The notes under the pieces were generated by a model, which did no database searches, was not told where the DNA came from, and worked only from the letters and a program-made list of their open reading frames with translations. A stretch of 64,000 bases of DNA from Methylobacterium mesophilicum SR1.6/6 (GTDB lineage Bacteria > Pseudomonadota > Alphaproteobacteria > Rhizobiales > Beijerinckiaceae), in the NCBI RefSeq assembly GCF_000364445.2, contig NZ_CP043538.1:3601875-3665874 (forward strand). Direction: 5' to 3'. The translations under genes were made by a program, and so were the position numbers. Below are positions 12,351 through 21,994 of this stretch, one piece after another. The first letter of the stretch is position 1; the number at the start of each line of letters is the position of its first letter.

Positions 12351-13136
12351 ATGCGCGCGCCCTGGATCGAGACGGTCGTCCGGCACTGGCGGCACGGGCG
12401 GATCGTCCGGCGTCGTGCGGGTGAACGGCATCCCGGCATCGTCGCCGCGCTCCGCGCCGCGACGCCCGACAGCGTGCTGCTGGCGGGCAACTCGCATGCG
12501 GAGTTCATCGGAAGCCCGGATCTCGGCGGCCGGCCCTGCATCAACCTCGCCGTCGGCGGCAGCACCGCCGCCGACTGCGCCCGCCACCTCGCGGATCTGC
12601 GGCTTCCGGTCCGCTGCGCGGCCGCGATCCTGATCATCGGCACCAACGACCTCCAACGCTGGCGGCACCCGGAGCGTCTCCGCACCCGCGACCGGTTCGA
12701 GGTCGAGGCCCGACGCATCCTGCGGATCCTGGACCGGTGGTCGGCGCAGGTCTTCGTCGCCGCGGTCCCACCGATCGGCACCGAGGCGACCGGCCGGGAT
12801 CCCGCTGCCGTCGCGGCCTTCTCGGCGCGCCTCGCCGGACTCTGCGTCGCGGAAGGCCACGCGTTCGTCGATCCCTTCGCGCGATGGCGGGCCGGCACCG
12901 GAGGACTGGCCGGTGCGGGGCTCCACCGGGACGGCGTGCATCTCGCCGACTACGCGCCCCTGGCGGAGGCGGTCGCCCGGCTGGTGGCGCTCGGCCCCGA
13001 ACCGCCTGCCGGGCGGCCATGGTGTCCGGCCGCTCCGATCCCGGTCGCGCCGGCGGCGGCTTCGGCGATGGCCCCTGCGATAGCTACTGCGGCGACCCTA
13101 CGGGTCCTGCGCGCCGCCTGGATCGGTCGCCTGTGA
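12351..13136 (+). CDS. SGNH/GDSL-type hydrolase
   Basis: A 261-residue protein with the four SGNH blocks: LLAGNSHAEF with the putative nucleophile Ser48, GGSTAAD near residue 69 (Gly block), GTND at 97-100 (Asn block) and DGVHL with Asp194 and His197. Block I reads GNS instead of the usual GDS, a variant seen in some acyl-esterase-like members. No signal peptide is evident, so it is probably cytoplasmic. The C-terminus is Ala/Pro-rich. ATG 12351 has GAGGA upstream. The stop overlaps the next small gene. Substrate unknown; esterase or carbohydrate de-acetylase are possibilities. Confidence 0.75.
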   Translation: MRAPWIETVVRHWRHGRIVRRRAGERHPGIVAALRAATPDSVLLAGNSHAEFIGSPDLGGRPCINLAVGGSTAADCARHLADLRLPVRCAAAILIIGTNDLQRWRHPERLRTRDRFEVEARRILRILDRWSAQVFVAAVPPIGTEATGRDPAAVAAFSARLAGLCVAEGHAFVDPFARWRAGTGGLAGAGLHRDGVHLADYAPLAEAVARLVALGPEPPAGRPWCPAAPIPVAPAAASAMAPAIATAATLRVLRAAWIGRL

Positions 13137-13459
13137 GGATCCGTGAAGTCCTGGCGGCGGTCGTTCGACCGCATCCGGGCCAGCGAGGCGGCACCGGGCG
13201 GCCCCTCCCCGTCCGCATCTGGCCCGACGATGCGGCGCTCTGGCTCGACGAGAACGGCGTCCGGCACCGCCGCGCGGCGCGGCACGTCCTCGCGTCGCTG
13301 GCGGCCTTGAGGCACGGCGGCCGCTACGGCGCTCGGGTGGCCGGCACGGGCAAGGTCGTGACCGGGCCGGTCAGCGTCCTGACCCTGCGGGACCCGCAGG
13401 ACGAGTGCGGGTTCGTCTTCTGCCTCACGCCGTGCGGTCATGGGGAGGAGCACTTCTGA
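13133..13459 (+). CDS. Small hypothetical protein (108 aa)
   Basis: Starts at GTG 13133, overlapping the TGA of the SGNH gene (GTGA), which suggests translational coupling. The product includes PLPVRIWPDDAALWLDENGV and AARHVLASLAALRHGGRY and has no recognised domain, signal or membrane segment. Codon use fits a coding frame. Without homologues the start and reality of the gene remain moderately supported. Confidence 0.5.
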   Translation: MRIREVLAAVVRPHPGQRGGTGRPLPVRIWPDDAALWLDENGVRHRRAARHVLASLAALRHGGRYGARVAGTGKVVTGPVSVLTLRDPQDECGFVFCLTPCGHGEEHF

Positions 13460-13533
13460 GCCCACGAGGGATCGCGGGGGCGCGCCGCAAAACCGGGGAC
13501 CACGTGCAGCACCACCTGCGCTGGGATGTGCGC

Positions 13534-14307
13534 TCACGGCGGGCTCGTGCACAGCAGGGTCGGCGCGCAGACCGTCCGGAAGCCGGCACGGGCGTAGAGC
13601 GCCTCGATGGCGCCGCCGGCCGGGCATTGCAGGAAGACCTGCACGGCCCCTCGCGCCCGCGCCTCGCGCAGGGCCGCGGTGGTCACGGCGGCGCCGAGCC
13701 CGCGGCGCTGCCGGTCAAACCGGGTGCTGACGTTGTAGAGCCCGGCCGTGTCGCCGCGCAGGTAGAGACTCGCGCAGGCCGCCGGGCCGGCGGCGTCGCG
13801 CAGGACGAGGTGGAGCGGCGCCACGCCGGGCCGGACCCGGGCCGCCCGGAGCGCCGGCAGGTAGGTGCGGCGCAGGTGTGTCCGCACGGCGGGATCGTCC
13901 GACAGGTTGGCGAAGACGCCCTCGAAAACCGGCCCCGGCGCGGGGGTCGCCTGCACGGCAACCGGGTCGTCCCCAGCGGACCGGGCCGGCAGCGACCGCG
14001 CCACCATCCAGCTCGCCGGGTAATGCACGGCGGGCTCGAACAGCCCGCGCAGGAGCGCGACCTCCTCGGCATCCCGGGCCAGGAAGGCCGGCGCCCGGGC
14101 GCGCCCCAGGGCCGCCGCCCCCGCCCAGGCGAACTGGTCGGGCCGGCTGACCCCGTAGGCGAAATTCAGGGTCGGGTCCGGGATGCCGCGCGACCAGACG
14201 TAGCCGGCGCCGCCGGGTCCGTGCTCGACGCCGTCGATCAGGGAGCCGGTGAGCGACGCCACGTGGGCCTCGCGCAGGGCGTCGAAGGTGAGATCGAGCG
14301 CCCGCAT
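13534..14307 (-). CDS. GNAT family N-acetyltransferase, siderophore locus
   Basis: A 257-residue protein whose C-terminal half carries the acetyl-CoA-binding pattern RFDRQRRGLGAAVTTAALRE and ends with a typical GNAT tail (IEALYARAGFRTV). It follows the NRPS stop by two bases in the same operon. The vicibactin locus of Rhizobium also has a second acyltransferase (VbsC) that acetylates the alpha-amino group; a similar role here is inference. The N-terminal half is divergent from standard GNATs. Confidence 0.75.
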   Translation of the reverse strand: MRALDLTFDALREAHVASLTGSLIDGVEHGPGGAGYVWSRGIPDPTLNFAYGVSRPDQFAWAGAAALGRARAPAFLARDAEEVALLRGLFEPAVHYPASWMVARSLPARSAGDDPVAVQATPAPGPVFEGVFANLSDDPAVRTHLRRTYLPALRAARVRPGVAPLHLVLRDAAGPAACASLYLRGDTAGLYNVSTRFDRQRRGLGAAVTTAALREARARGAVQVFLQCPAGGAIEALYARAGFRTVCAPTLLCTSPP

Positions 14308-14309
14308 GG

Positions 14310-17163
14310 TCAGGCGGCGGTCGAGTTGGGCTCGGCTGACGACAACGCGGCGATCCGGGCGTGCAGGTGGGGCGACAGCACGATGTCGAGGTGATCGGTC
14401 TCCGGCACGGTCTCGACCGACAGGAGCCGGCTCGTGAGCGGCGCCCAGTCGATCACCGGCAGGCCGCGCCCCCGGGAATCCGCGGCCACGAAGCTGCGGA
14501 TCGGCACCGCGCCTTCCTCCAGTCGGAGGGCGCGGAACTGGACGGCGTGGTCGACCAGCGTCCAGAGCATCCGCTCCCGGCTGCCGACCTCTGGACCGTC
14601 GGCCGGCAGGGGCTGCGGCTCGGCGGCGAGGAAGCGCAGGAACTGCACCTCCGCCTCCGGATCCATGCGGGCGCGCAGGGCCTCCCACTGGGCCGCCATC
14701 GGCGAGCGGTCGAGCCAGGCCGCCAGCATCGCCCCGTGCGCCGCCCGCTCGTCGGCCGCGATCGGCCGGCCGGCGCCGGGGGCGAAGGTGGGCTCCAGCC
14801 CGCAGGCGTCGAGCATGCCGACCCAGTCCAGGGGAAAGCCGGGGCCGAGGCGCCGGGCGGTCTCGTAGGCGAGCACCCCGCCCCAGGACCAGCCCAGGAA
14901 GATGCAGGACCCGGCCCGCCCGCGCATCAGCGCGCGCACCTGCGCGGCGTATGCGGCGGCGAGGTCGGCGACCGGCGGCAGGGGCCGCACCGCCTCCACC
15001 AGCGAGGCGCAGAGGAAGCCGTGCGCTTCCTGCTCCGGGCCGAGGCGGGCCACCAGTGGCTCGTATTCCCGGGTGCTGACGAGCAGTCCCGGGAACAGCA
15101 CGAGGAGCGGCCGGCCGCTTCCCGGGCGTCCGGCGCTGAGCCGGACCGTCGGGGCCACGCCCTCTTCGGCGGAGGCGGCGCCCGCCTCGACCCGGGCCGC
15201 CAGCTCCCCGATGGTCGGATCGCGCAGGAGATCCGCCACCCCGATCCCGCCTCGGGGGGCGATCAGGCGCAGCCGCGCCACCAGTCGCAGGGCCGAGAGG
15301 GAATCGCCGCCGAGTTCGAAGAAGCGCCGATCGGCGACCCGGACCGGGAAGCCCAGGACCTCGGACCAGATCCCCGCGAGTCGCCGCTCCGTGGCGGTGC
15401 CCGGCGGTCGCCCGCGGCGGTCGTCGGCGGCCGGATCCGGCAGGGCGTTGCGGTCGAGCTTGCCGTTGGTGGTCACCGGCATCCGGTCCAGGAGAGTCAG
15501 GCTCGCCGGCACCATGGGCTCCGGCAGGGTGCGGGCGAGGCCGGCGCGCAGACGCCCGGCCTCCGGGCGGCGCCCGCGCACCGGGACGACGTAGCCCGCG
15601 AGGTAGGCGCCGGCCGGGCCGTCCCGGCGCAGGACCACGGCCTCCGCGACCCCCGGCAGGGACCGCAGGGCGGCCTCGACCTCGCCGATCTCGATCCGGT
15701 GGCCGCGGATCTTGACCTGATCGTCGGCCCGTCCCGCGAAGGCGAGGCTGCCGTCGGGCCGCCGTCGCACCCGGTCCCCGGTCCGGTACATCCGTCCGCC
15801 ACCCGCGGCGAACGGGTCGGGCAGGAAGCGCTCGGCGGTGAGCGCCGGGCGCTGCCAGTAGCCGCGGGCGAGGCCGCCGCCGATGTAGAGCTCGCCGGTC
15901 TCACCGTCCGCGACGGGCACGAGGTCGGGACCGAGCACGTAGGCCGCCCGCGTCCCCACCGGGCCGCCGATCGGCGCGTAGGGCTCATCGAAGGCCGCGT
16001 CCGACGGCACCTTCCAGATGAGGGGCGAGATCACGCACTCGGTCGGGCCGTAGCCGTTGATCAGCAGCCGGGGCTTCAGGGCGCGGCCGAGCCGCGCGAA
16101 GGTCTCCCGAGGCATGCCCTCCCCGCCGAAGGAGTAGACCTGGACCGTGGGCGCCGCGCCCAGGCGCTCGGCCCACTCGGCGAGCTGGCCGATGAAGCTC
16201 GTCGGGAAGCCCGCATGGGTCACCCGGTGGCGGCGGATCTGCGCCAGGGTCTCGGCGGCAGTCCACAGCTCCGGGCCGCGCAGCACGATGCAGCCGCCGG
16301 CCACCAGCGGCGTCATCCAGCGTTCGTGCGCACCGTCGAAGGCGAAGGACAGAACGTGCAGTTCGCGCGACTCCACGTTCATCTCGTACGCCTCGGCCGT
16401 GCTGCGGCAGTGCATGGCGAGCGGCCCGTGCTCGACGACGACACCCTTGGGCGCCCCCGTCGAGCCCGACGTGTAGATCAGGTAGGCGGGATCCCCCGGG
16501 TTCGGGCGGTGCGGGCGCGGCGGAGACCGGGCCGTCCTCGAGGGCCGCGCGGTCGAGCCGGGTGATCGCCGGAGGCAGCTCCAGGCGACCGGCGATCTCG
16601 GGCGTCGTGAGGCAGTGAACGATCCCGGCATCCGCCAGCATCCCGTGCACCCGGGCGGGCGGATACGCGGGATCGAGGGGCAGGAAAGCCGCGCCGGCCC
16701 GCAGCACCCCGAGCAGGGCCACGATCATCTCCGGCCCCCGCTCCAGCGCCACCGCCACGCGGTCCCCACGCCCGATGCCCCGTGCCGCGAGCCCGTCCGC
16801 CAGGGCGGCGGCCCGGGCGTCGAGATCGCCTCGGGTGAGCGTCGCGCCTTCGAACAGCACCGCCGGCCGGCCAGGCTCCGCCGCGGCGAGGCGTGCGAGA
16901 CGGGCCGGCACGGTCTCGCGGTCGGCGTCGTGTGGTGGCCCTGCCGGAGAGCTTGACGCGCGGGCGTTCGCCGCATCCGCGATCCAGGCCCGGGCCTCAG
17001 CGATCGTGCAGGGGCCGTGCACCCGGTTCCAGCCGGCGGGCAGCGCGCGTCCGTCGGGCCAGAAGGCGCCGTGCCCGGCCTGATCGAAGGTCACCACGAC
17101 GGTGCCATCCATCCAATCCGCGGCCGATCCCGCGTCCCCGTCCTCGCCGGCCTGCCTGTCCAT
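14310..17163 (-). pseudogene. One-module NRPS (MbtH-A-T-TE), frameshifted as read
   Basis: ATG 17163 has AGGAG upstream. Residues about 19-66 form an MbtH-like domain (GAFWPDGRALPAGWNRVHG) fused to an adenylation domain with [27 protein letters not shown] and NGKLDR. A thiolation domain follows ([14 protein letters not shown]), then a thioesterase with GWSWGG. There is no condensation domain. The frame changes between about 16500 and 16535: the N-terminal part ends near [13 protein letters not shown] and the rest resumes at [11 protein letters not shown] one frame away; the span is not a multiple of three. Both halves are otherwise intact, so a recent mutation or a sequencing error in the C/G run is likely. 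Expected job: activate and oligomerise or cyclise an N-hydroxy-N-acyl diamino acid into a hydroxamate siderophore. Confidence 0.85.
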
Positions 17164-17198
17164 CCGCTCGCTCCTGCGCCGCTCGGGCTTCGAGGGAC

Positions 17199-17224
17199 TG
17201 ACGGTTGAGCCGGGACGCCGTTCA
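17199..17224 (+). promoter_or_regulatory. Putative ECF-type promoter of the acetyltransferase-hydroxylase-exporter operon
   Basis: TGACGGTTG at 17199-17207 and GTTCA at 17220-17224, separated by 12 bases. The identical pair with the same spacing occurs on the opposite strand at 17281-17256, each about 90 bp from its gene start. The arrangement resembles a -35/-10 pair of an ECF sigma factor, and one is encoded in this locus. This is inferred from sequence only. Confidence 0.6.
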
Positions 17225-17255
17225 CGGCGGCGCGTTCAGGCGCGCCCGAAAAGCC

Positions 17256-17281
17256 TGAACCGCCGCCGGGGCCAACCGTCA
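17256..17281 (-). promoter_or_regulatory. Putative ECF-type promoter of the NRPS operon
   Basis: Read on the minus strand: TGACGGTTG (17281-17273), 12 bases, GTTCA (17260-17256). This is the mirror image of the plus-strand element at 17199-17224. It would give a leader of about 90 nt before the NRPS ATG. Confidence 0.6.
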
Positions 17282-17310
17282 GGGAGGTGCCGGAGACGTG
17301 TGGAGGGCGG

Positions 17311-18297
17311 ATGAGGGACGAGTCACGGGACGAGGCACGAGTCCGGCTCGCGGTGGCGGGCAGCCGGGAGGCGCCCCTGATCCGCGTCGCCGAACTGGGC
17401 ACGCCGGACGCCGCCGTGGAGGCGATCCTGGCCCGCGCCGAGGCGCTGACCGCGCAGGACACGGGGGTTCAGCGGATCGCCGTCGCGGCCGATCCGGAGA
17501 CGGCCGGGCGGCTCCTCGCCCTCGGGGCCGCCCGCCGCGTCGGCGACGGGATCGAGATCCTGCCGGGCCTGCTCTGGCAATGCGCCGCCCGATGGCTCCC
17601 CGATGCGCGGCCGCCCTTCCCCGCGCTGTACATCGCCACGGAAGGCCGCCGCCATCCGCTGCGCCCCGAGACGCCGGCCGGCACCGTCTACGCCCGCGTC
17701 ATTCCCTGGCTCGAGCGCACCTTGAGCTTCCGCACCCTGACGGAGCCCGGCGACGTCGCCCTGTTCTCGGCCTGGATGAACGATCCGCGCGTCGCCGCCG
17801 TCTGGCAGGAGACCGGATCCCTCGACGCGCACGCCACCTATATCGGCAGGCTCCAGTCCGATGCCGGGACCCTGCCGCTCCTCGGATGCCTCGACGGCAC
17901 GCCCTTCGGCTATTTCGAGCTCTACTGGGCGCGCGAGAGCCGCCTCGGTCCGCTCTACGAATCCGACCCCTACGACCGCGGTTGGCATGTGGCGATCGGC
18001 GATGCGGCGGTGCGCGGACGCTCGTACCTCTCGGCCTGGCTGCCGTCGCTGATGCATTACCTGTTCCTCGACGAGCCGCGCACGCAGCGCATCGTCGGGG
18101 AGCCCCGGGCGGATCACGCCCAGCAGATCCGGAATCTCCACGCCTCAGGCTTCGCCACGGTGGCGACCATCGACTTCCCGCACAAGCGCGCGGCCCTGGT
18201 CGCCCTGTCACGCGAGCACTTCGTCCGCGACCGGCTCTGGGTGCCGGGCGCGGCCGCCGCCGACGCCGCACCACGGCCGCCCGCCGTGCCGGCCTGA
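17311..18297 (+). CDS. IucB/VbsA-type siderophore acetyltransferase
   Basis: A 328-residue protein. Its C-terminal GNAT domain (about residues 130-310) shows the AlcB/IucB pattern: FSAWMNDPRVAAVWQETGS, PFGYFELYWARES, YDRGWHVAIGD, and FLDEPRTQRIVGEPRADHAQ. This family acylates the side-chain hydroxylamine of N-hydroxy-lysine or N-hydroxy-ornithine to give hydroxamates. The ATG at 17311 is chosen over GTG 17287 because GGAGG at 17302-17306 is correctly spaced. It is first in an operon with the N-hydroxylase and MATE exporter and divergent from the NRPS. Confidence 0.88.
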   Translation: MRDESRDEARVRLAVAGSREAPLIRVAELGTPDAAVEAILARAEALTAQDTGVQRIAVAADPETAGRLLALGAARRVGDGIEILPGLLWQCAARWLPDARPPFPALYIATEGRRHPLRPETPAGTVYARVIPWLERTLSFRTLTEPGDVALFSAWMNDPRVAAVWQETGSLDAHATYIGRLQSDAGTLPLLGCLDGTPFGYFELYWARESRLGPLYESDPYDRGWHVAIGDAAVRGRSYLSAWLPSLMHYLFLDEPRTQRIVGEPRADHAQQIRNLHASGFATVATIDFPHKRAALVALSREHFVRDRLWVPGAAAADAAPRPPAVPA

Positions 18298-18392
18298 CGC
18301 GCCAGCCTGACGCGCTCTTGCACCGCCGGGACCGCCGGTTCGGCGAAGGAGCGTGGCAGACCACGAGCTTCGACCTGTTCCCGACCACAGAG

Positions 18393-19733
18393 ATGCGCGC
18401 GATGACGGATCACCCCGAGACCGACGACATCATCGGCATCGGCTTCGGCCCGGCCAACCTGTCCCTCGCCATCGCCCTCCAAGACGCGATCGGCGACGGA
18501 CCGCCGCGGCCGTCCCTCCGGTTCATCGAGCGGCAGGAACGGTTCGGCTGGCACCGGGCGATGATGCTGCCCGGCGCCGACATGCAGATCAGCTTCGTGA
18601 AGGACCTCGTGTCCCTGCGCGATCCGACGAGCCCATTCAGCTTTCTCAATTACCTGCATGTGAAGGGGCGGCTCAGCACCTTCCTCAACCTGAAGACCTT
18701 CAACCCGTCGCGCGTGGAGTACAACGACTATCTCGCCTGGGCGGCGAACCACTTCTCGGACGTGGTTGCTTACGGCGAGATCGTCGAAGCCGTACGGCCG
18801 GAGGCGCGCGACGGGCGGCTCGCCGCCTTCGTGGTCGAGGCCCGGGACGGGGCAGGTGTGTCCCGCCTGCGCCGCTGCCGCCACCTCATCGTGGCGGCGG
18901 GCGGTGATCCGGCGATCCCCGCCCCCTTCGCCGCCCACGCGCAGGACCCCAGGCTGATCCATTCCTCCTGGTACCTGCCGGGAATCGCGCAGGCCCTCGG
19001 GGCGCCGCGCCTCGACGGGCCGGAACCCCGCATCCTGGTGGTGGGTGCGGGTCAGAGCGCCGTGGAGATCGCCACCGACCTGGGCGAGCGCTATCCGCGC
19101 GCGCTCATCGACCTCGCGATCCGCGGGCCGGCCTTGAAGCCCGCCGATGACAGCCCCTTCGTCAACGAGATCTTCGATCCGGCTGCCGTTGACCGCATCC
19201 ACGACGCGCCGGAGCCGGTGCGGGCGGAGCTGATCGCCGCACACCGGTCCACCAATTACGCGGTGGTCGACGCGGACCTGATCCAGGATCTCTACGCCAC
19301 CCTCTACGAGCAGGCGGTGAGCGGCGTGACCCGCTACCGGCTGCGGCGCAGCACCCGGGTGGTGGCGCTGGATCCGGGATCGGGCGCCCTGTGCGCGACC
19401 CTGCGCGACGACGTCGCCGGGGTCGAGGAGCGCCAGCCCTACGCGGCGGTGATCTGCGCCACGGGCTACCAGCGCGCCGCGGTGCCGGCGATCCTCGACC
19501 CCGTGCGCCCGTTCCTCGCCGGCGAGACCGCGGACCGGAACTATCGCCTGCCGCTCACTCTCGCCGAGCCCCGGGTGAGCCTGCACCTGCAGGGGTTCAG
19601 CGAGCCGACCCACGGGTTGACCGAGACCCTGCTGTCGATCCTGCCGGTGCGGGCCGGCGCCATTGCGCGGACGATCCTCAGGGAGGAGCGCGCCGCCCGG
19701 GCCGCGATCCGTTCCGCCGCGTCGGCTCCGTGA
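18393..19733 (+). CDS. L-lysine/L-ornithine N-monooxygenase (IucD/PvdA/VbsO family)
   Basis: A 446-residue FAD/NADPH-dependent hydroxylase making the N-hydroxy side chain for hydroxamate siderophores. Visible are the FAD site IGIGFGPANLSLA near residue 14, the NADPH site VVGAGQSAVEIATDL near 217, and CATGYQR near 355. Conserved middle segments include PGADMQISFVKDLVSLRDP and FNPSRVEYNDYLAWAA. ATG 18402 is an alternative start; neither has a strong ribosome site. The stop overlaps the exporter start. Whether lysine or ornithine is the substrate cannot be told by eye. Confidence 0.92.
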   Translation: MRAMTDHPETDDIIGIGFGPANLSLAIALQDAIGDGPPRPSLRFIERQERFGWHRAMMLPGADMQISFVKDLVSLRDPTSPFSFLNYLHVKGRLSTFLNLKTFNPSRVEYNDYLAWAANHFSDVVAYGEIVEAVRPEARDGRLAAFVVEARDGAGVSRLRRCRHLIVAAGGDPAIPAPFAAHAQDPRLIHSSWYLPGIAQALGAPRLDGPEPRILVVGAGQSAVEIATDLGERYPRALIDLAIRGPALKPADDSPFVNEIFDPAAVDRIHDAPEPVRAELIAAHRSTNYAVVDADLIQDLYATLYEQAVSGVTRYRLRRSTRVVALDPGSGALCATLRDDVAGVEERQPYAAVICATGYQRAAVPAILDPVRPFLAGETADRNYRLPLTLAEPRVSLHLQGFSEPTHGLTETLLSILPVRAGAIARTILREERAARAAIRSAASAP

Positions 19734-21145
19734 GGCGGCCGGCCGACCTCGACCGGGACGGGGTCGTCGCCCTGGTCCTGCGGCTCTCGGGGCCGGCGAT
19801 CCTCGGGATCTCCGCTCACGCCCTACAGATGCTGGTCAACGCGTGGTTCGTGGCCGATCTCGGGGTGGCGGCCATCGCCACCATCGCCATCGCGTATCCG
19901 GTCACGCTGCTTGTGGCGGCGCTCGGCTACGGGGCCGGGATCGCGGCGGCCTCGCAGGTCGCGCGGGCGCTCGGTGCGGGCAACCGGCACCGGGCCGACG
20001 CGGCCGCCGCCCTGGGATTCTGGCTGAGTCTGCCGGCCGGGCTCGTCGTGACGGTCGCGATCCTCATCGACACGCCGTTCTGGCTCCGGCTCCTCGGCGC
20101 GGACTCCGCGCTGGCCGCCGCGGCCGCGCCCTACACGGCGCTCGCCACGGTCGGCACGGTCCTGATGCTGGTGATGATCGTCGGCGGCTTCATCGTCCGA
20201 GCTCAGGGTCATGCGCGCCTGAGCGGCGCCATCATGGTCGGCGGCTTCGGCCTGAACATCCTGCTCGACTGGGTGCTGATCCGCCTCTGCGGCCTCGGCA
20301 CCGCGGGTGCGGGCTGGGCGGCGATCGGTGCGCAACTCGCGGGCGCCGGAGCGTACGGCCTGCACTATGTCCGGGCGCGGGGTCCGGACCGGATCCGGTT
20401 CCGGTGGCCCGGCCGAGGCCGGATCGAGCCCGGCCTGATCCCTGAGGCCCTTCGGCTCGCCGTACCGGCCACCGGGTCAAGCCTGCTCGCGGCCTTCGCG
20501 ATGGCGCTGTTCGTCGAGGCAGCCGCCCCCTACGGCGACGCCGCGGTCGCCGCTCAGGGCATCGCCCTGCGCCTGACCCTGGTGGCGGCCCTGCCGCTGC
20601 TCGGTATGATGGCTGGCGCCCAGGCTGTGCTCGGCCACGCGGCCGGCGCCGGACGGCGGGACCGTCTGCACCGCGCCCTCGGCGTCGTGCTCGCCGCCGC
20701 CCTCGTCTACGGATTCGGCGTCGGCGGTCTGATGGCCGCGCTGGCGGGGCCGCTCGCCGGCCTGTTCGCGCAGGATCCCGGCACCGCCCGCGAGGGGGCT
20801 CGCGCGTTGGTCATCTTCGCCCTCGCCTTCGCGCCGGTCGGCCTACAGCTCGCCGCCGCGACCCTGTTCCAGGCCATCGGCGCGCCGCGCCGGGCCGCCG
20901 CGGTGTCGCTGGCCGCGCAGGGGCTGGCGCTGATCCCGCCGCTCCTGATCCTGCCGCCGCTCATGGGCTACGCGGGCGTGCTCGCCAGCCGGGTCGCGGC
21001 CGAGTTCCTGGCCGACGGGATCGGGCTGGCCCTGATGCTGGCCTGGTTTGCGGACGCGCGCCGGGCAGGCGGCGCAGCGGCGGTCGAGGGCCGCGAGACA
21101 GTGGAGGTGCCCCCGGCGCACGAGGCCGCACACCAGGGCACGTGA
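19730..21145 (+). CDS. MATE family exporter, probably for the siderophore
   Basis: A 471-residue protein with about twelve hydrophobic helices in two halves and MATE features such as LVNAWFVADLGVAAIATIA near the N-terminus. GTG 19730 overlaps the hydroxylase TGA (GTGA), so it is co-translated. Position after biosynthesis genes argues for siderophore export across the inner membrane. The last roughly 30 residues (from FADARRAGG) look non-conserved, and the last 100 codons are antisense to the sigma factor gene, so the natural C-terminus may be shorter. Confidence 0.88.
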   Translation: MRRPADLDRDGVVALVLRLSGPAILGISAHALQMLVNAWFVADLGVAAIATIAIAYPVTLLVAALGYGAGIAAASQVARALGAGNRHRADAAAALGFWLSLPAGLVVTVAILIDTPFWLRLLGADSALAAAAAPYTALATVGTVLMLVMIVGGFIVRAQGHARLSGAIMVGGFGLNILLDWVLIRLCGLGTAGAGWAAIGAQLAGAGAYGLHYVRARGPDRIRFRWPGRGRIEPGLIPEALRLAVPATGSSLLAAFAMALFVEAAAPYGDAAVAAQGIALRLTLVAALPLLGMMAGAQAVLGHAAGAGRRDRLHRALGVVLAAALVYGFGVGGLMAALAGPLAGLFAQDPGTAREGARALVIFALAFAPVGLQLAAATLFQAIGAPRRAAAVSLAAQGLALIPPLLILPPLMGYAGVLASRVAAEFLADGIGLALMLAWFADARRAGGAAAVEGRETVEVPPAHEAAHQGT

Positions 21146-21652
21146 GACCCCGAGCCGCGCCGCGATCTCGATCTGCGGCACGCCCTCGACCCGGTGGAGC
21201 CGGAAGGCGGTGCGCACCGGCTCCGGCAACTCGGCCACCGCGGCCGCGACCTGCCGCAGGGATTCCCGAGAGGCTGCGGCCGTCTCGGGCGTTCCCGCCC
21301 CGGGATCGGCCGGGTCCGGAGCGGCGTCGAGGCCGGTGAACAGGCGCCCCTCGAAGCCCCGCCGGCGCGCCCGGTCGAGGGCGAGGTTGCGCACCATCCG
21401 GCCGACATAGGCGGCCCGATCGGCCTGCTCGGCTTGCGGTGGGTCGGCGATGAGACGCAGCATCACGTCCTGGACCACGTCCTCGGCCTGGGCCGGGCAG
21501 CCGAGGATGCGGCGCGCCCGCGTCAGGTAGGCGGCGCGATGGCGCACGAACGCAGCGAGGTTCCACGTTGCCGCGTCGACCGGCTGCCGGTCGGCGCGCC
21601 CGGTCGCCGCAAAGTCATGGCTCACGTCGCGCTTGAGGGCTGCCACTGTCAC
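20843..21652 (-). CDS. ECF sigma factor (FecI/RpoI-like) with abnormal C-terminal tail
   Basis: Sigma region 2 lies at about residues 45-105 (AEDVVQDVMLRLIADPP, RMVRNLALDRARRR) and region 4 at about 140-190 (LPEPVRTAFRLHRVEGVPQI, ARLGVSRALV). Family members end near AALDRR, residue about 191. Here the frame runs another 78 residues that are only the antisense of MATE membrane helices. The overlap with the MATE gene is 303 bp tail to tail and includes part of the region 4 helix-turn-helix. GTG 21652 is the likely start. No anti-sigma FecR gene is adjacent. Control of the siderophore operons parallels RpoI of Rhizobium vicibactin genes, by inference. Confidence 0.82.
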   Translation of the reverse strand: MTVAALKRDVSHDFAATGRADRQPVDAATWNLAAFVRHRAAYLTRARRILGCPAQAEDVVQDVMLRLIADPPQAEQADRAAYVGRMVRNLALDRARRRGFEGRLFTGLDAAPDPADPGAGTPETAAASRESLRQVAAAVAELPEPVRTAFRLHRVEGVPQIEIAARLGVSRALVCGLVRRGHLHCLAALDRRCAACPARVRKPGQHQGQPDPVGQELGRDPAGEHARVAHERRQDQERRDQRQPLRGQRHRGGPARRADGLEQGRGGEL

Positions 21653-21994
21653 GCTCGCAGAGTTCGTGCAGAGGCAAGGGCTATCACGGGAAATCTTTGC
21701 GCAACAACCTCTATGTTCATGAATTAGAACTATTAAAACTTGCGAACGCTTCGTTTTTTTCTGCCGGATTGTCTATAGAATTCAGTCTCCGGCGATTGTG
21801 GTCACCCGCGTCGACTTGCTGTCCGGATCTCCGGCCCCCGCCCGCCCGGCGCCGGCTCGGGCGCGCCAGGGCACGGGCGGCCGTGTATGCTGGGCGCGTG
21901 CCGATTCGGAGCGGGCGACCGGTCCGGATGTCCCGCACGATGGCCTTCGCGATGTCCCTCGCGCGGGCGCGCGAGCAGGAGAACCAGCGCCGCG

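What the first reader, a model, noticed from the sequence alone, without database searches (positions are those of the whole stretch)
13534..21652. Compact hydroxamate siderophore locus with a condensation-less NRPS
The sequence shows an NRPS with MbtH, A, T and TE domains but no C domain, plus an IucB-type acyltransferase, an N-hydroxylase, a second GNAT, a MATE exporter and an ECF sigma factor. From established knowledge, the rhizobial vicibactin system (VbsS/VbsO/VbsA/VbsC with RpoI) uses a comparable kit in which the TE oligomerises and cyclises hydroxamate units. Genes for the epimerase and hydroxybutyrate parts (VbsL, VbsG and others) are missing, so the product may be a simpler, undescribed oligohydroxamate. 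The N-terminal MbtH fusion adds to the novelty.
Basis: partly seen in the sequence, partly recalled or inferred. Interest (0 to 1): 0.75.

Follow-up and report, generated by a model that had tools for sequence, protein, structure and literature searches.

The report
Siderophore synthetase without condensation domain
A small iron-scavenger gene cluster in Methylobacterium builds its product with an assembly enzyme that has no bond-forming condensation domain; related enzymes mostly keep that domain in a form that looks dead, so the releasing domain probably joins the building blocks by itself.

Summary
The cluster has a GNAT, an MbtH-A-T-TE synthetase, a VbsA-like acyltransferase, an ornithine N-hydroxylase, a MATE exporter and an ECF sigma factor. 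The synthetase frame is broken near 16.5 kb here but open in 14 of 14 other Methylobacterium genomes carrying it (of 110) and in a 99% identical protein; two further database entries also look broken. No other Condensation domain or IucA/IucC was found in the genome. It is not vicibactin: VbsS has a C domain, and VbsL, VbsC and a VbsO-type hydroxylase are missing; VbsG (MbtH) is fused, not missing. New here: the catalytic second His of HHxxxDG is gone in 84 of 85 aligned VbsS-like C domains; this lineage lacks the domain and has MbtH fused to A. Its A pocket differs from VbsS at three positions, tracking the VbsL epimerase (17 of 17 loci against 0 of 22, one phylogenetic split). Paired ECF promoters lie in the divergent gap in 15 of 15 loci with the sigma gene, 0 of 5 without. 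Most likely the TE alone builds a cyclic oligohydroxamate from N5-acyl-N5-hydroxy-L-ornithine; the product is unproven. New variant of a known kind.

The parts
13534..14307 (-). GNAT acyltransferase, 257 aa, directly downstream of the synthetase; possible alpha-amine acetylase (functional stand-in for VbsC)
   Evidence: Pfam Acetyltransf_1 E 7e-05; present in 14 of 14 Methylobacterium loci and 4 of 4 Chelatococcus-type loci, no match in L142 and L185; no match to VbsC at E 1e-3
14310..17163 (-). MbtH-A-T-TE synthetase gene, frame broken at about 16495-16514 in this genome
   Evidence: intact 950-aa allele P0001 in Methylobacterium sp. A49B
16978..17088 (-). N-terminal MbtH-like domain (matched part)
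   Evidence: Pfam MbtH 25.3 bits; only MbtH match in the genome
15459..16893 (-). adenylation domain, split by the frame break; pocket D-G-E-G-(S)-G-G-I-S-K
   Evidence: Pfam AMP-binding in both pieces and AMP-binding_C; pocket (GrsA ruler recalled; fifth position read by eye)
15189..15383 (-). thiolation (carrier) domain with LGGDS serine
   Evidence: Pfam PP-binding E 1.6e-10; Ser in 120 of 120 aligned rows
14336..15104 (-). thioesterase domain, GWSWG nucleophile, Asp and His conserved
   Evidence: Pfam Thioesterase E 1e-07, matched part 15104-14847, the rest inferred; S, D, H in 120 of 120 aligned rows
17200..17224 (-). ECF-type promoter for the synthetase: TGAAC-N14-ACCGTC
17256..17280 (+). 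ECF-type promoter for the acyltransferase operon: TGAAC-N14-ACCGTC
17311..18297 (+). VbsA/SidF-like N5-hydroxyornithine acyltransferase (upstream GTG at 17287 also possible)
   Evidence: Acetyltransf_8 E 3.5e-51; VbsA 50.5% over 285 aa and 59% over the 192-aa GNAT core; best PDB match SidF E 2.9e-48
18402..19733 (+). probable L-ornithine N5-hydroxylase, PvdA/SidA type
   Evidence: Lys_Orn_oxgnase E 1.1e-105 (on 18300-19733); best PDB match 3s5w, L-ornithine 5-monooxygenase, E 6.6e-103
19730..21145 (+). MATE exporter, 38% identical to VbsD; GTG start overlaps the hydroxylase stop
20843..21652 (-). ECF sigma factor, RpoI-like; 3' end overlaps the MATE gene antisense
   Evidence: Sigma70_r2 E 1.6e-11, Sigma70_r4_2 E 4.2e-09; RpoI 31% over 158 aa

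Best explanation
The locus makes a hydroxamate siderophore with a single-module synthetase whose condensation domain was first inactivated and then deleted. Steps: (1) the hydroxylase makes N5-hydroxy-L-ornithine; (2) the VbsA-like acyltransferase adds an acyl group to N5, most likely (R)-3-hydroxybutyryl from its CoA ester; (3) the A domain, helped by the MbtH domain fused to it, loads this unit onto the carrier; (4) the TE stores and joins about three units and cyclises them, most likely through ester bonds to the hydroxy group of the acyl chain, without any C domain; (5) the GNAT probably acetylates the free alpha-amines; (6) the MATE protein exports the product; (7) the ECF sigma factor drives both divergent operons from paired promoters. 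Shown here by sequence: the parts, the pocket, conserved T and TE residues, loss of the C domain's catalytic His in relatives, no other C domain found in the genome, the promoter pairing. Inferred: acyl group, L configuration, ring size, ester linkage, role of the GNAT, that the sigma factor reads these promoters. This strain probably does not make the product, because its synthetase frame is broken, unless that break is a sequencing error.
For: C-less synthetase with open frame in 14 of 14 other Methylobacterium genomes carrying it, of 110 others searched, and P0001 99% identical and full length. No other C domain in the genome and no IucA/IucC. Second His of HHxxxDG replaced in 84 of 85 VbsS-like C domains (P 63, R 16, A 4, S 1) while the first His and the Asp stay in 85 of 85; the one intact case, L009, is the terminal module of a multimodular synthetase. 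Control: of 192 windows upstream of A domains in unrelated NRPSs, 136 read HHxxxDG, 27 gave no motif, 27 read HH with a changed last residue, 1 read HR, 1 is in no printed row. Where an MbtH gene was found (13 of 19 C-bearing loci), it lies 1.64-2.06 kb upstream of the start of the A-T-TE match in 12 of 13; in 3 of 3 C-less loci measured it is fused, at 0.47-0.50 kb, as one deletion would give. One origin is not rejected (p-AU 0.59, constrained tree better by 6.62 log units). T and TE catalytic residues in 120 of 120 rows. Acyltransferase 59% to VbsA over 192 aa against 44-47% for IucB over about the same part. Pocket and epimerase: VbsL in 17 of 17 loci with the VbsS-type pocket, in 0 of 22 with this pocket. 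Promoters in both directions in 15 of 15 loci with the sigma gene and in 0 of 5 without; in 1000 shuffles of each gap both directions matched in none. Fhu-type uptake genes beside the Chelatococcus C-less loci.
Against: No chemistry or expression data. Acyl donor not proven: SidF (anhydromevalonyl) and IucB (acetyl) are also relatives of the acyltransferase. No esterase match in 22 of 22 loci with this pocket, although ester-linked siderophores often have one (recalled) and 7 of 17 VbsS-type loci do. No TonB receptor match lies in the window, and no good ECF motif was found upstream of the 17 in the genome. Counted over the whole window with one mismatch allowed, two motif matches are not unusual: 21 of 100 shuffles had as many. 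The pocket/VbsL correlation is one phylogenetic split, and the five sigma-less loci are two lineages. Six of 19 C-bearing loci had no MbtH match and in one the MbtH lies elsewhere, so the neighbouring-gene fusion does not fit every relative. The acyltransferase tree does not show the C-less loci as one group (3 changes). The MbtH domain is weak in Methylobacterium: Pfam MbtH is listed for 2 of the 28 proteins P0001-P0028. P0029 and P0034 look like broken copies in other strains. The cluster lacks its own PPTase; two lie elsewhere.
Confidence: 0.66

Rival explanations
1. Amide-linked product: the acyl group is acetyl (or formyl) and the TE joins units through the alpha-amine, giving a cyclic di- or tripeptide of N5-acyl-N5-hydroxyornithine (rhodotorulic-acid-like) that the GNAT does not cap.
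For: IucB, an acetyltransferase by name, is 44-47% identical over the GNAT core; no esterase match in 22 of 22 loci.
Against: VbsA is closer over the same part (59%); the TE belongs to the VbsS-type set, whose rhizobial member makes esters (recalled from Heemstra 2009); amide linkage through the alpha-amine would leave no clear job for the GNAT.
Confidence: 0.17
2. A C domain acts in trans, or the TE only hydrolyses and releases a monomer that another enzyme oligomerises.
For: Stand-alone C domains exist in other systems (recalled).
Against: No Condensation match anywhere in the genome; no IucA/IucC-type synthetase.
Confidence: 0.08
3. The locus makes vicibactin itself with the missing genes elsewhere in the genome.
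For: vbs-like kit and similar sigma/promoter layout.
Against: Best VbsL-like matches in the genome are 32-37% PLP paralogs, whereas VbsL-type proteins of three vbs-like plasmid loci are 52-54% identical to R. etli VbsL; different A pocket; no VbsC match in 22 of 22 loci.
Confidence: 0.03
4. The locus is a decaying relic, in this strain and perhaps in more of the genus.
For: Frame break in the window genome; P0029 and P0034, on long contigs, also look broken; weak MbtH domain.
Against: Open frame in 14 of 14 other Methylobacterium carriers; promoters, T and TE residues conserved. The break here may be recent or an assembly error.
Confidence: 0.06

Closest known systems
Vicibactin system (vbsGSO, vbsADL, vbsC, vbsP, rpoI) of Rhizobium etli / leguminosarum
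   Same: A-T-TE 47% identical, VbsA-type acyltransferase, MATE exporter, MbtH, ECF sigma factor, divergent ECF-type promoters of the same layout
   Different: No C domain, MbtH fused, PvdA/SidA-type instead of VbsO-type hydroxylase, no VbsL, no VbsC, different A pocket
C-bearing VbsS-like synthetases with this pocket (17 rows: Oxalobacteraceae such as Duganella and Rugamonas; Microvirga sp. VF16; others)
   Same: Pocket DGEG-(S)-GGISK; in Microvirga also no VbsL match
   Different: Keep a C domain, with HR or HP in place of HH in the rows looked at (P0039, P0041, P0042)
SlgN1 (PDB 4gr5), MbtH-A protein; name recalled
   Same: N-terminal MbtH fused to an A domain; alignment covers residues 18-575 of P0001
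   Different: By recall a streptolydigin enzyme; no T-TE oligomeriser
EntF of enterobactin and SidD/SidF of fusarinine C (chemistry recalled)
   Same: Iterative assembly of a cyclic ester trimer; SidF is the closest solved relative of the acyltransferase
   Different: EntF has a working C domain and uses serine; SidD is fungal
VibF C1 of vibriobactin synthetase
   Same: A catalytically inactive C domain kept in a siderophore NRPS (seen only as a reference title in PMC5577590)
   Different: Kept for dimerisation according to that title, not deleted

Membership tests
Vicibactin biosynthesis (vbs) | VbsS tetradomain C-A-T-TE | tested here: not met
   No C domain in gene or genome; VbsS has one
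Vicibactin biosynthesis (vbs) | VbsG (MbtH) | tested here: met
   Present as a fused N-terminal domain; weak score
Vicibactin biosynthesis (vbs) | VbsA acyltransferase | tested here: met
   50.5% over 285 aa, 59% over the core; substrate not tested
Vicibactin biosynthesis (vbs) | VbsO-type hydroxylase | tested here: not met
   29% to VbsO; closest to L-ornithine 5-monooxygenases of another group. Three Rhodobacterales vbs-like loci also lack the VbsO type, so this feature is not universal
Vicibactin biosynthesis (vbs) | VbsL epimerase | tested here: not met
   No match in 22 of 22 loci with this pocket; genome has only 32-37% paralogs
Vicibactin biosynthesis (vbs) | VbsC acetylase | tested here: not met
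   No match in 22 of 22 loci; an unrelated GNAT in 18 of 22
Vicibactin biosynthesis (vbs) | RpoI-type ECF sigma factor and its promoters | tested here: met
   31% to RpoI; T[AG]AA[CT]-N14-N[CT]CGTC in both directions here and in R. etli
Vicibactin biosynthesis (vbs) | Product: cyclic trihydroxamate of 3-hydroxybutyryl-D-ornithine | not testable with these tools
   Needs chemistry
NRPS-independent (IucA/IucC) hydroxamate siderophores | IucA/IucC synthetase | tested here: not met
   0 matches of PF04183 in the genome
Conventional NRPS elongation module | Condensation domain with HHxxxDG | tested here: not met
   Absent
MbtH-A fusion proteins | MbtH domain N-terminal to an A domain in one chain | tested here: met
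   P0001 aligns with 4gr5 over residues 18-575; MbtH part of weak score

The most novel reading that the evidence does not exclude
The whole vicibactin-type family assembles its rings with the thioesterase alone: its C domain lost the catalytic histidine early, and the line leading to Methylobacterium, Methylosinus and Chelatococcus went on to delete it, leaving an MbtH-A-T-TE enzyme that makes an undescribed L-ornithine cyclic oligohydroxamate. The antiSMASH metallophore rule quoted in PMC12971057, which (outside two other triggers) asks for one gene with both Condensation and AMP-binding domains, would miss these clusters as metallophores. They may explain some Methylobacterium type strains that are siderophore-positive without a detected cluster (7 of 9 in PMC9301485); which strains carry the locus was not checked.
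Probability: 0.5. Interest if true: 0.75.

Novelty: new variant of a known kind. Interest (0 to 1): 0.58.

Why it matters
It separates two jobs usually credited to one machine. A natural synthetase that has only its TE to join units would be a clean test of TE-catalysed oligomerisation, and the motif survey predicts that rhizobial VbsS works the same way. It also names a hydroxamate pathway in a common plant-associated genus whose siderophores are only partly mapped, and a cluster type that a C-domain-based metallophore rule would not report.

Tried and rejected
Cognate TonB receptor by shared promoter: the exact motif occurs 5 times in the genome, 2 of them here, reversed control 0. The other three sites are not beside any of the 17 receptor matches. 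In the 400 bp upstream of the receptor ORFs the best match had 2 mismatches, which 32 of 200 shuffles equalled. Starts were taken as the first ATG/GTG; for one receptor (441352) the ORF is over-long, so its true upstream was not scanned. No receptor is assigned.

A-domain code from the literature: the string DGEGSGG was in none of the papers listed, so the pocket is compared only within the family.

Deciding the acyl group from the acyltransferase: closer to VbsA than to IucB, but SidF and IucB remain relatives. Not settled.

Structure of the intact protein: not obtained, so docking of the MbtH domain and the TE pocket were not modelled. The TE alone has no PDB sequence match at E 0.01.

Heemstra 2009, the VbsS biochemistry paper, is not held; statements on VbsS chemistry are recalled or second-hand (passages of PMC12144892). 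Whether that paper already remarks on the C motif I cannot say. That a C-less VbsS relative is not in print rests only on searches of an open-licence library, of which I saw listings and the passages cited.

SGNH hydrolase at 12351-13136 as part of the cluster: matches in 7 of 14 Methylobacterium loci, so treated as a neighbour.

Independent losses of C: the free tree gave two C-less groups; holding them together gave a better likelihood. The acyltransferase tree disagrees. Left open.

Rows dropped before counts: of 120 listed proteins (305 passed the threshold), the C-motif count used the 75 of at least 1150 aa plus 10 others, some near-duplicates. The tree and pocket counts left out proteins under 900 aa, P0022 (motif not found by the script) and P0073, P0075, P0098, P0104 as fragments.
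Full report
What is there. The window lies at 3601875-3665874 of a single 6,555,179-base contig. The three nearest named relatives of the synthetase among genome contigs are Methylobacterium (85-86%), and a 99% identical protein comes from Methylobacterium sp. A49B. The finding's coordinates hold six genes: GNAT and MbtH-A-T-TE synthetase on the minus strand; acyltransferase, ornithine N-hydroxylase and MATE exporter on the plus strand; an RpoI-like ECF sigma gene convergent to the exporter. No Condensation domain and no IucA/IucC was found in the genome. The fused MbtH is the only MbtH match. The hydroxylase is the only strong Lys_Orn_oxgnase match; two weaker matches were listed.

The frame break. 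Against P0001 the window reads in one frame to about residue 223 and in another from about residue 217, at 16495-16514. In 110 other Methylobacterium genomes the synthetase was found at 77-89% identity in 14, and in all 14 the frame is open. All 14 loci have matches to the same GNAT, synthetase, acyltransferase, hydroxylase, exporter and sigma gene. Two database entries, P0029 (574 aa, starts inside the A domain) and P0034 (865 aa, TE lost out of frame), lie on long contigs and look like broken copies in other strains. So the break in the window is not shared by the carriers examined, but it is perhaps not the only break in the genus, and it may be an error.

Relation to vicibactin. R. etli VbsS is 47% identical over A-T-TE, VbsA 50.5%, VbsD 38%, RpoI 31%, VbsO only 29%. 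VbsS carries a full C domain and VbsG is MbtH. Beside the Chelatococcus-type loci lie FhuB- and substrate-binding-protein genes, which supports a ferric-hydroxamate role. The synthetase type is thinly spread: matches at E 1e-150 in 11 of 397 genomes of the order and 1 of 385 of the class, the window's own included.

The condensation domain died before it was lost. I aligned the N-terminal regions of 85 C-bearing relatives: 75 database proteins plus R. etli, Thioclava, Pseudosulfitobacter, Paracoccus and six family genomes, a few of them near-duplicates (for example P0059/L007 and P0100/Paracoccus). The first His and the Asp of HHxxxDG are present in 85 of 85; the catalytic second His is replaced in 84 of 85. 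The exception, L009, belongs to a multimodular synthetase that served as outgroup. In unrelated NRPSs the same kind of look gave HHxxxDG in 136 of 192 windows, no motif in 27, HH with a changed last residue in 27, HR in 1, and 1 not printed. Of 19 C-bearing loci, 13 have an MbtH match, and in 12 of the 13 it sits directly upstream of the synthetase (L191 differs); 6 have none. In C-less loci MbtH and A are in one frame, and the distance from MbtH to the start of the A-T-TE match is 0.47-0.50 kb in the 3 measured, against 1.64-2.06 kb. One deletion would give this. A tree of 120 A-T-TE rows needs two changes for C loss, but a tree with the 35 C-less rows together fits better (p-AU 0.59); the acyltransferase tree needs three changes.

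Pocket and epimerase. All 35 C-less rows share the pocket D-G-E-G-(S)-G-G-I-S-K; 17 of 82 C-bearing rows share it; 65 of 82, including VbsS, read D-G-E-S-(S)-G-G-M-T-K. The ruler was a recalled GrsA fragment, and the fifth position was read by eye. Of 41 loci, two are outgroup loci without a VbsL match. The other 39, classed by the residue at position 330, have VbsL in 17 of 17 with the VbsS pocket and in 0 of 22 with this one. This is one split in the tree, but it suggests that VbsS-type enzymes take the D unit and this type the L unit. VbsC is matched in 7 of 17 and 0 of 22; the window's GNAT in 0 of 17 and 18 of 22, which fits a replacement of one acetylase by another.

Acyl group. Over the same GNAT core the acyltransferase is 59% identical to VbsA and 44-47% to IucB. 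Its best solved relative is SidF of fusarinine C. The hydroxylase is closest to an L-ornithine 5-monooxygenase, 3s5w. PMC12144892 (passages read) shows an (R)-3-hydroxybutyryl transferase acting before loading in pandorabactin and says that this agrees with the vicibactin model. I take 3-hydroxybutyryl as most likely; it is not shown.

Regulation. The 147-bp divergent gap holds TGAAC-N14-ACCGTC in both directions (17200-17224 minus, 17256-17280 plus). By count alone this is weak: with one mismatch allowed, 21 of 100 shuffles of the whole window had as many matches. Place and conservation carry the case. With the last part relaxed to N[CT]CGTC and a spacer of 13-15, both directions match in 15 of 15 loci that have the sigma gene (14 Methylobacterium and L185) and in 0 of 5 without it; in 1000 shuffles of each of these 20 gaps both directions never matched. 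The five sigma-less loci are two lineages. The R. etli vbs gap has the same layout with TAAAC/TAAAT, and three Rhodobacterales loci have TGAAT with a looser pattern. In the genome the exact pattern occurs five times, two of them here, and 0 times reversed. A sigma-70 scan of 13400-21900 found no site, but shuffles averaged only 0.1, so it says little.

Verdict. It is not vicibactin and fails four tested vbs features, though one of these, the VbsO type, is not universal; it still works like vbs. The more general point is that the C domain looks catalytically dead across the VbsS family and is gone here. The antiSMASH metallophore rule quoted in PMC12971057 (passages) requires, outside two other triggers, a gene with both Condensation and AMP-binding, which these loci lack; a generic NRPS-like call remains possible (recalled). 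PMC9301485 (section 10 and passages) reports nine Methylobacterium type strains without a detected siderophore cluster, seven of them CAS-positive; whether any carries this locus was not checked, and its malleobactin-like clusters could also be this locus.

Noticed in passing
window 20843-21652 and 19730-21145: The ECF sigma ORF runs about 300 nt into the 3' end of the convergent MATE gene; an overlap of 74-404 nt is seen in 15 of 15 loci measured.
   Followed up: partly
window 21690-21760: AT-rich block upstream of the sigma gene, ATGAATTAGAACTATTAAAAC, partly conserved in close relatives; may be a site for an iron regulator (Irr- or Fur-like), not tested.
   Followed up: no
G000:C1:4914909-4927790 (L203): Four TonB-receptor matches within about 13 kb, of 17 in the genome; with its own synthetase broken this strain may live on other microbes' siderophores.
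   Followed up: partly
L146, L147: Methylobacterium genomes G275 and G334 carry a C-A-T-TE synthetase with the same pocket, in G275 beside a larger NRPS; the C motif was read in G275 (L009) and is intact, HHLVSDG. A GNAT related to the window's (36-38%) lies nearby.
   Followed up: partly
41 loci: The hydroxylase was exchanged within the family: VbsO-type in 14 loci, the window's type in 25, none in the two outgroup loci.
   Followed up: partly
L161-L163, L186-L189: An esterase (PF00756 in Thioclava) is matched in 7 of 17 VbsS-pocket loci and 0 of 22 of the other type.
   Followed up: partly
P0029, P0034: Two database relatives of the synthetase on long contigs look truncated or out of frame, so breaks may recur in the genus.
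   Followed up: partly
window 12351-13136: SGNH/GDSL hydrolase gene beside the cluster, matched in 7 of 14 Methylobacterium loci.
   Followed up: no
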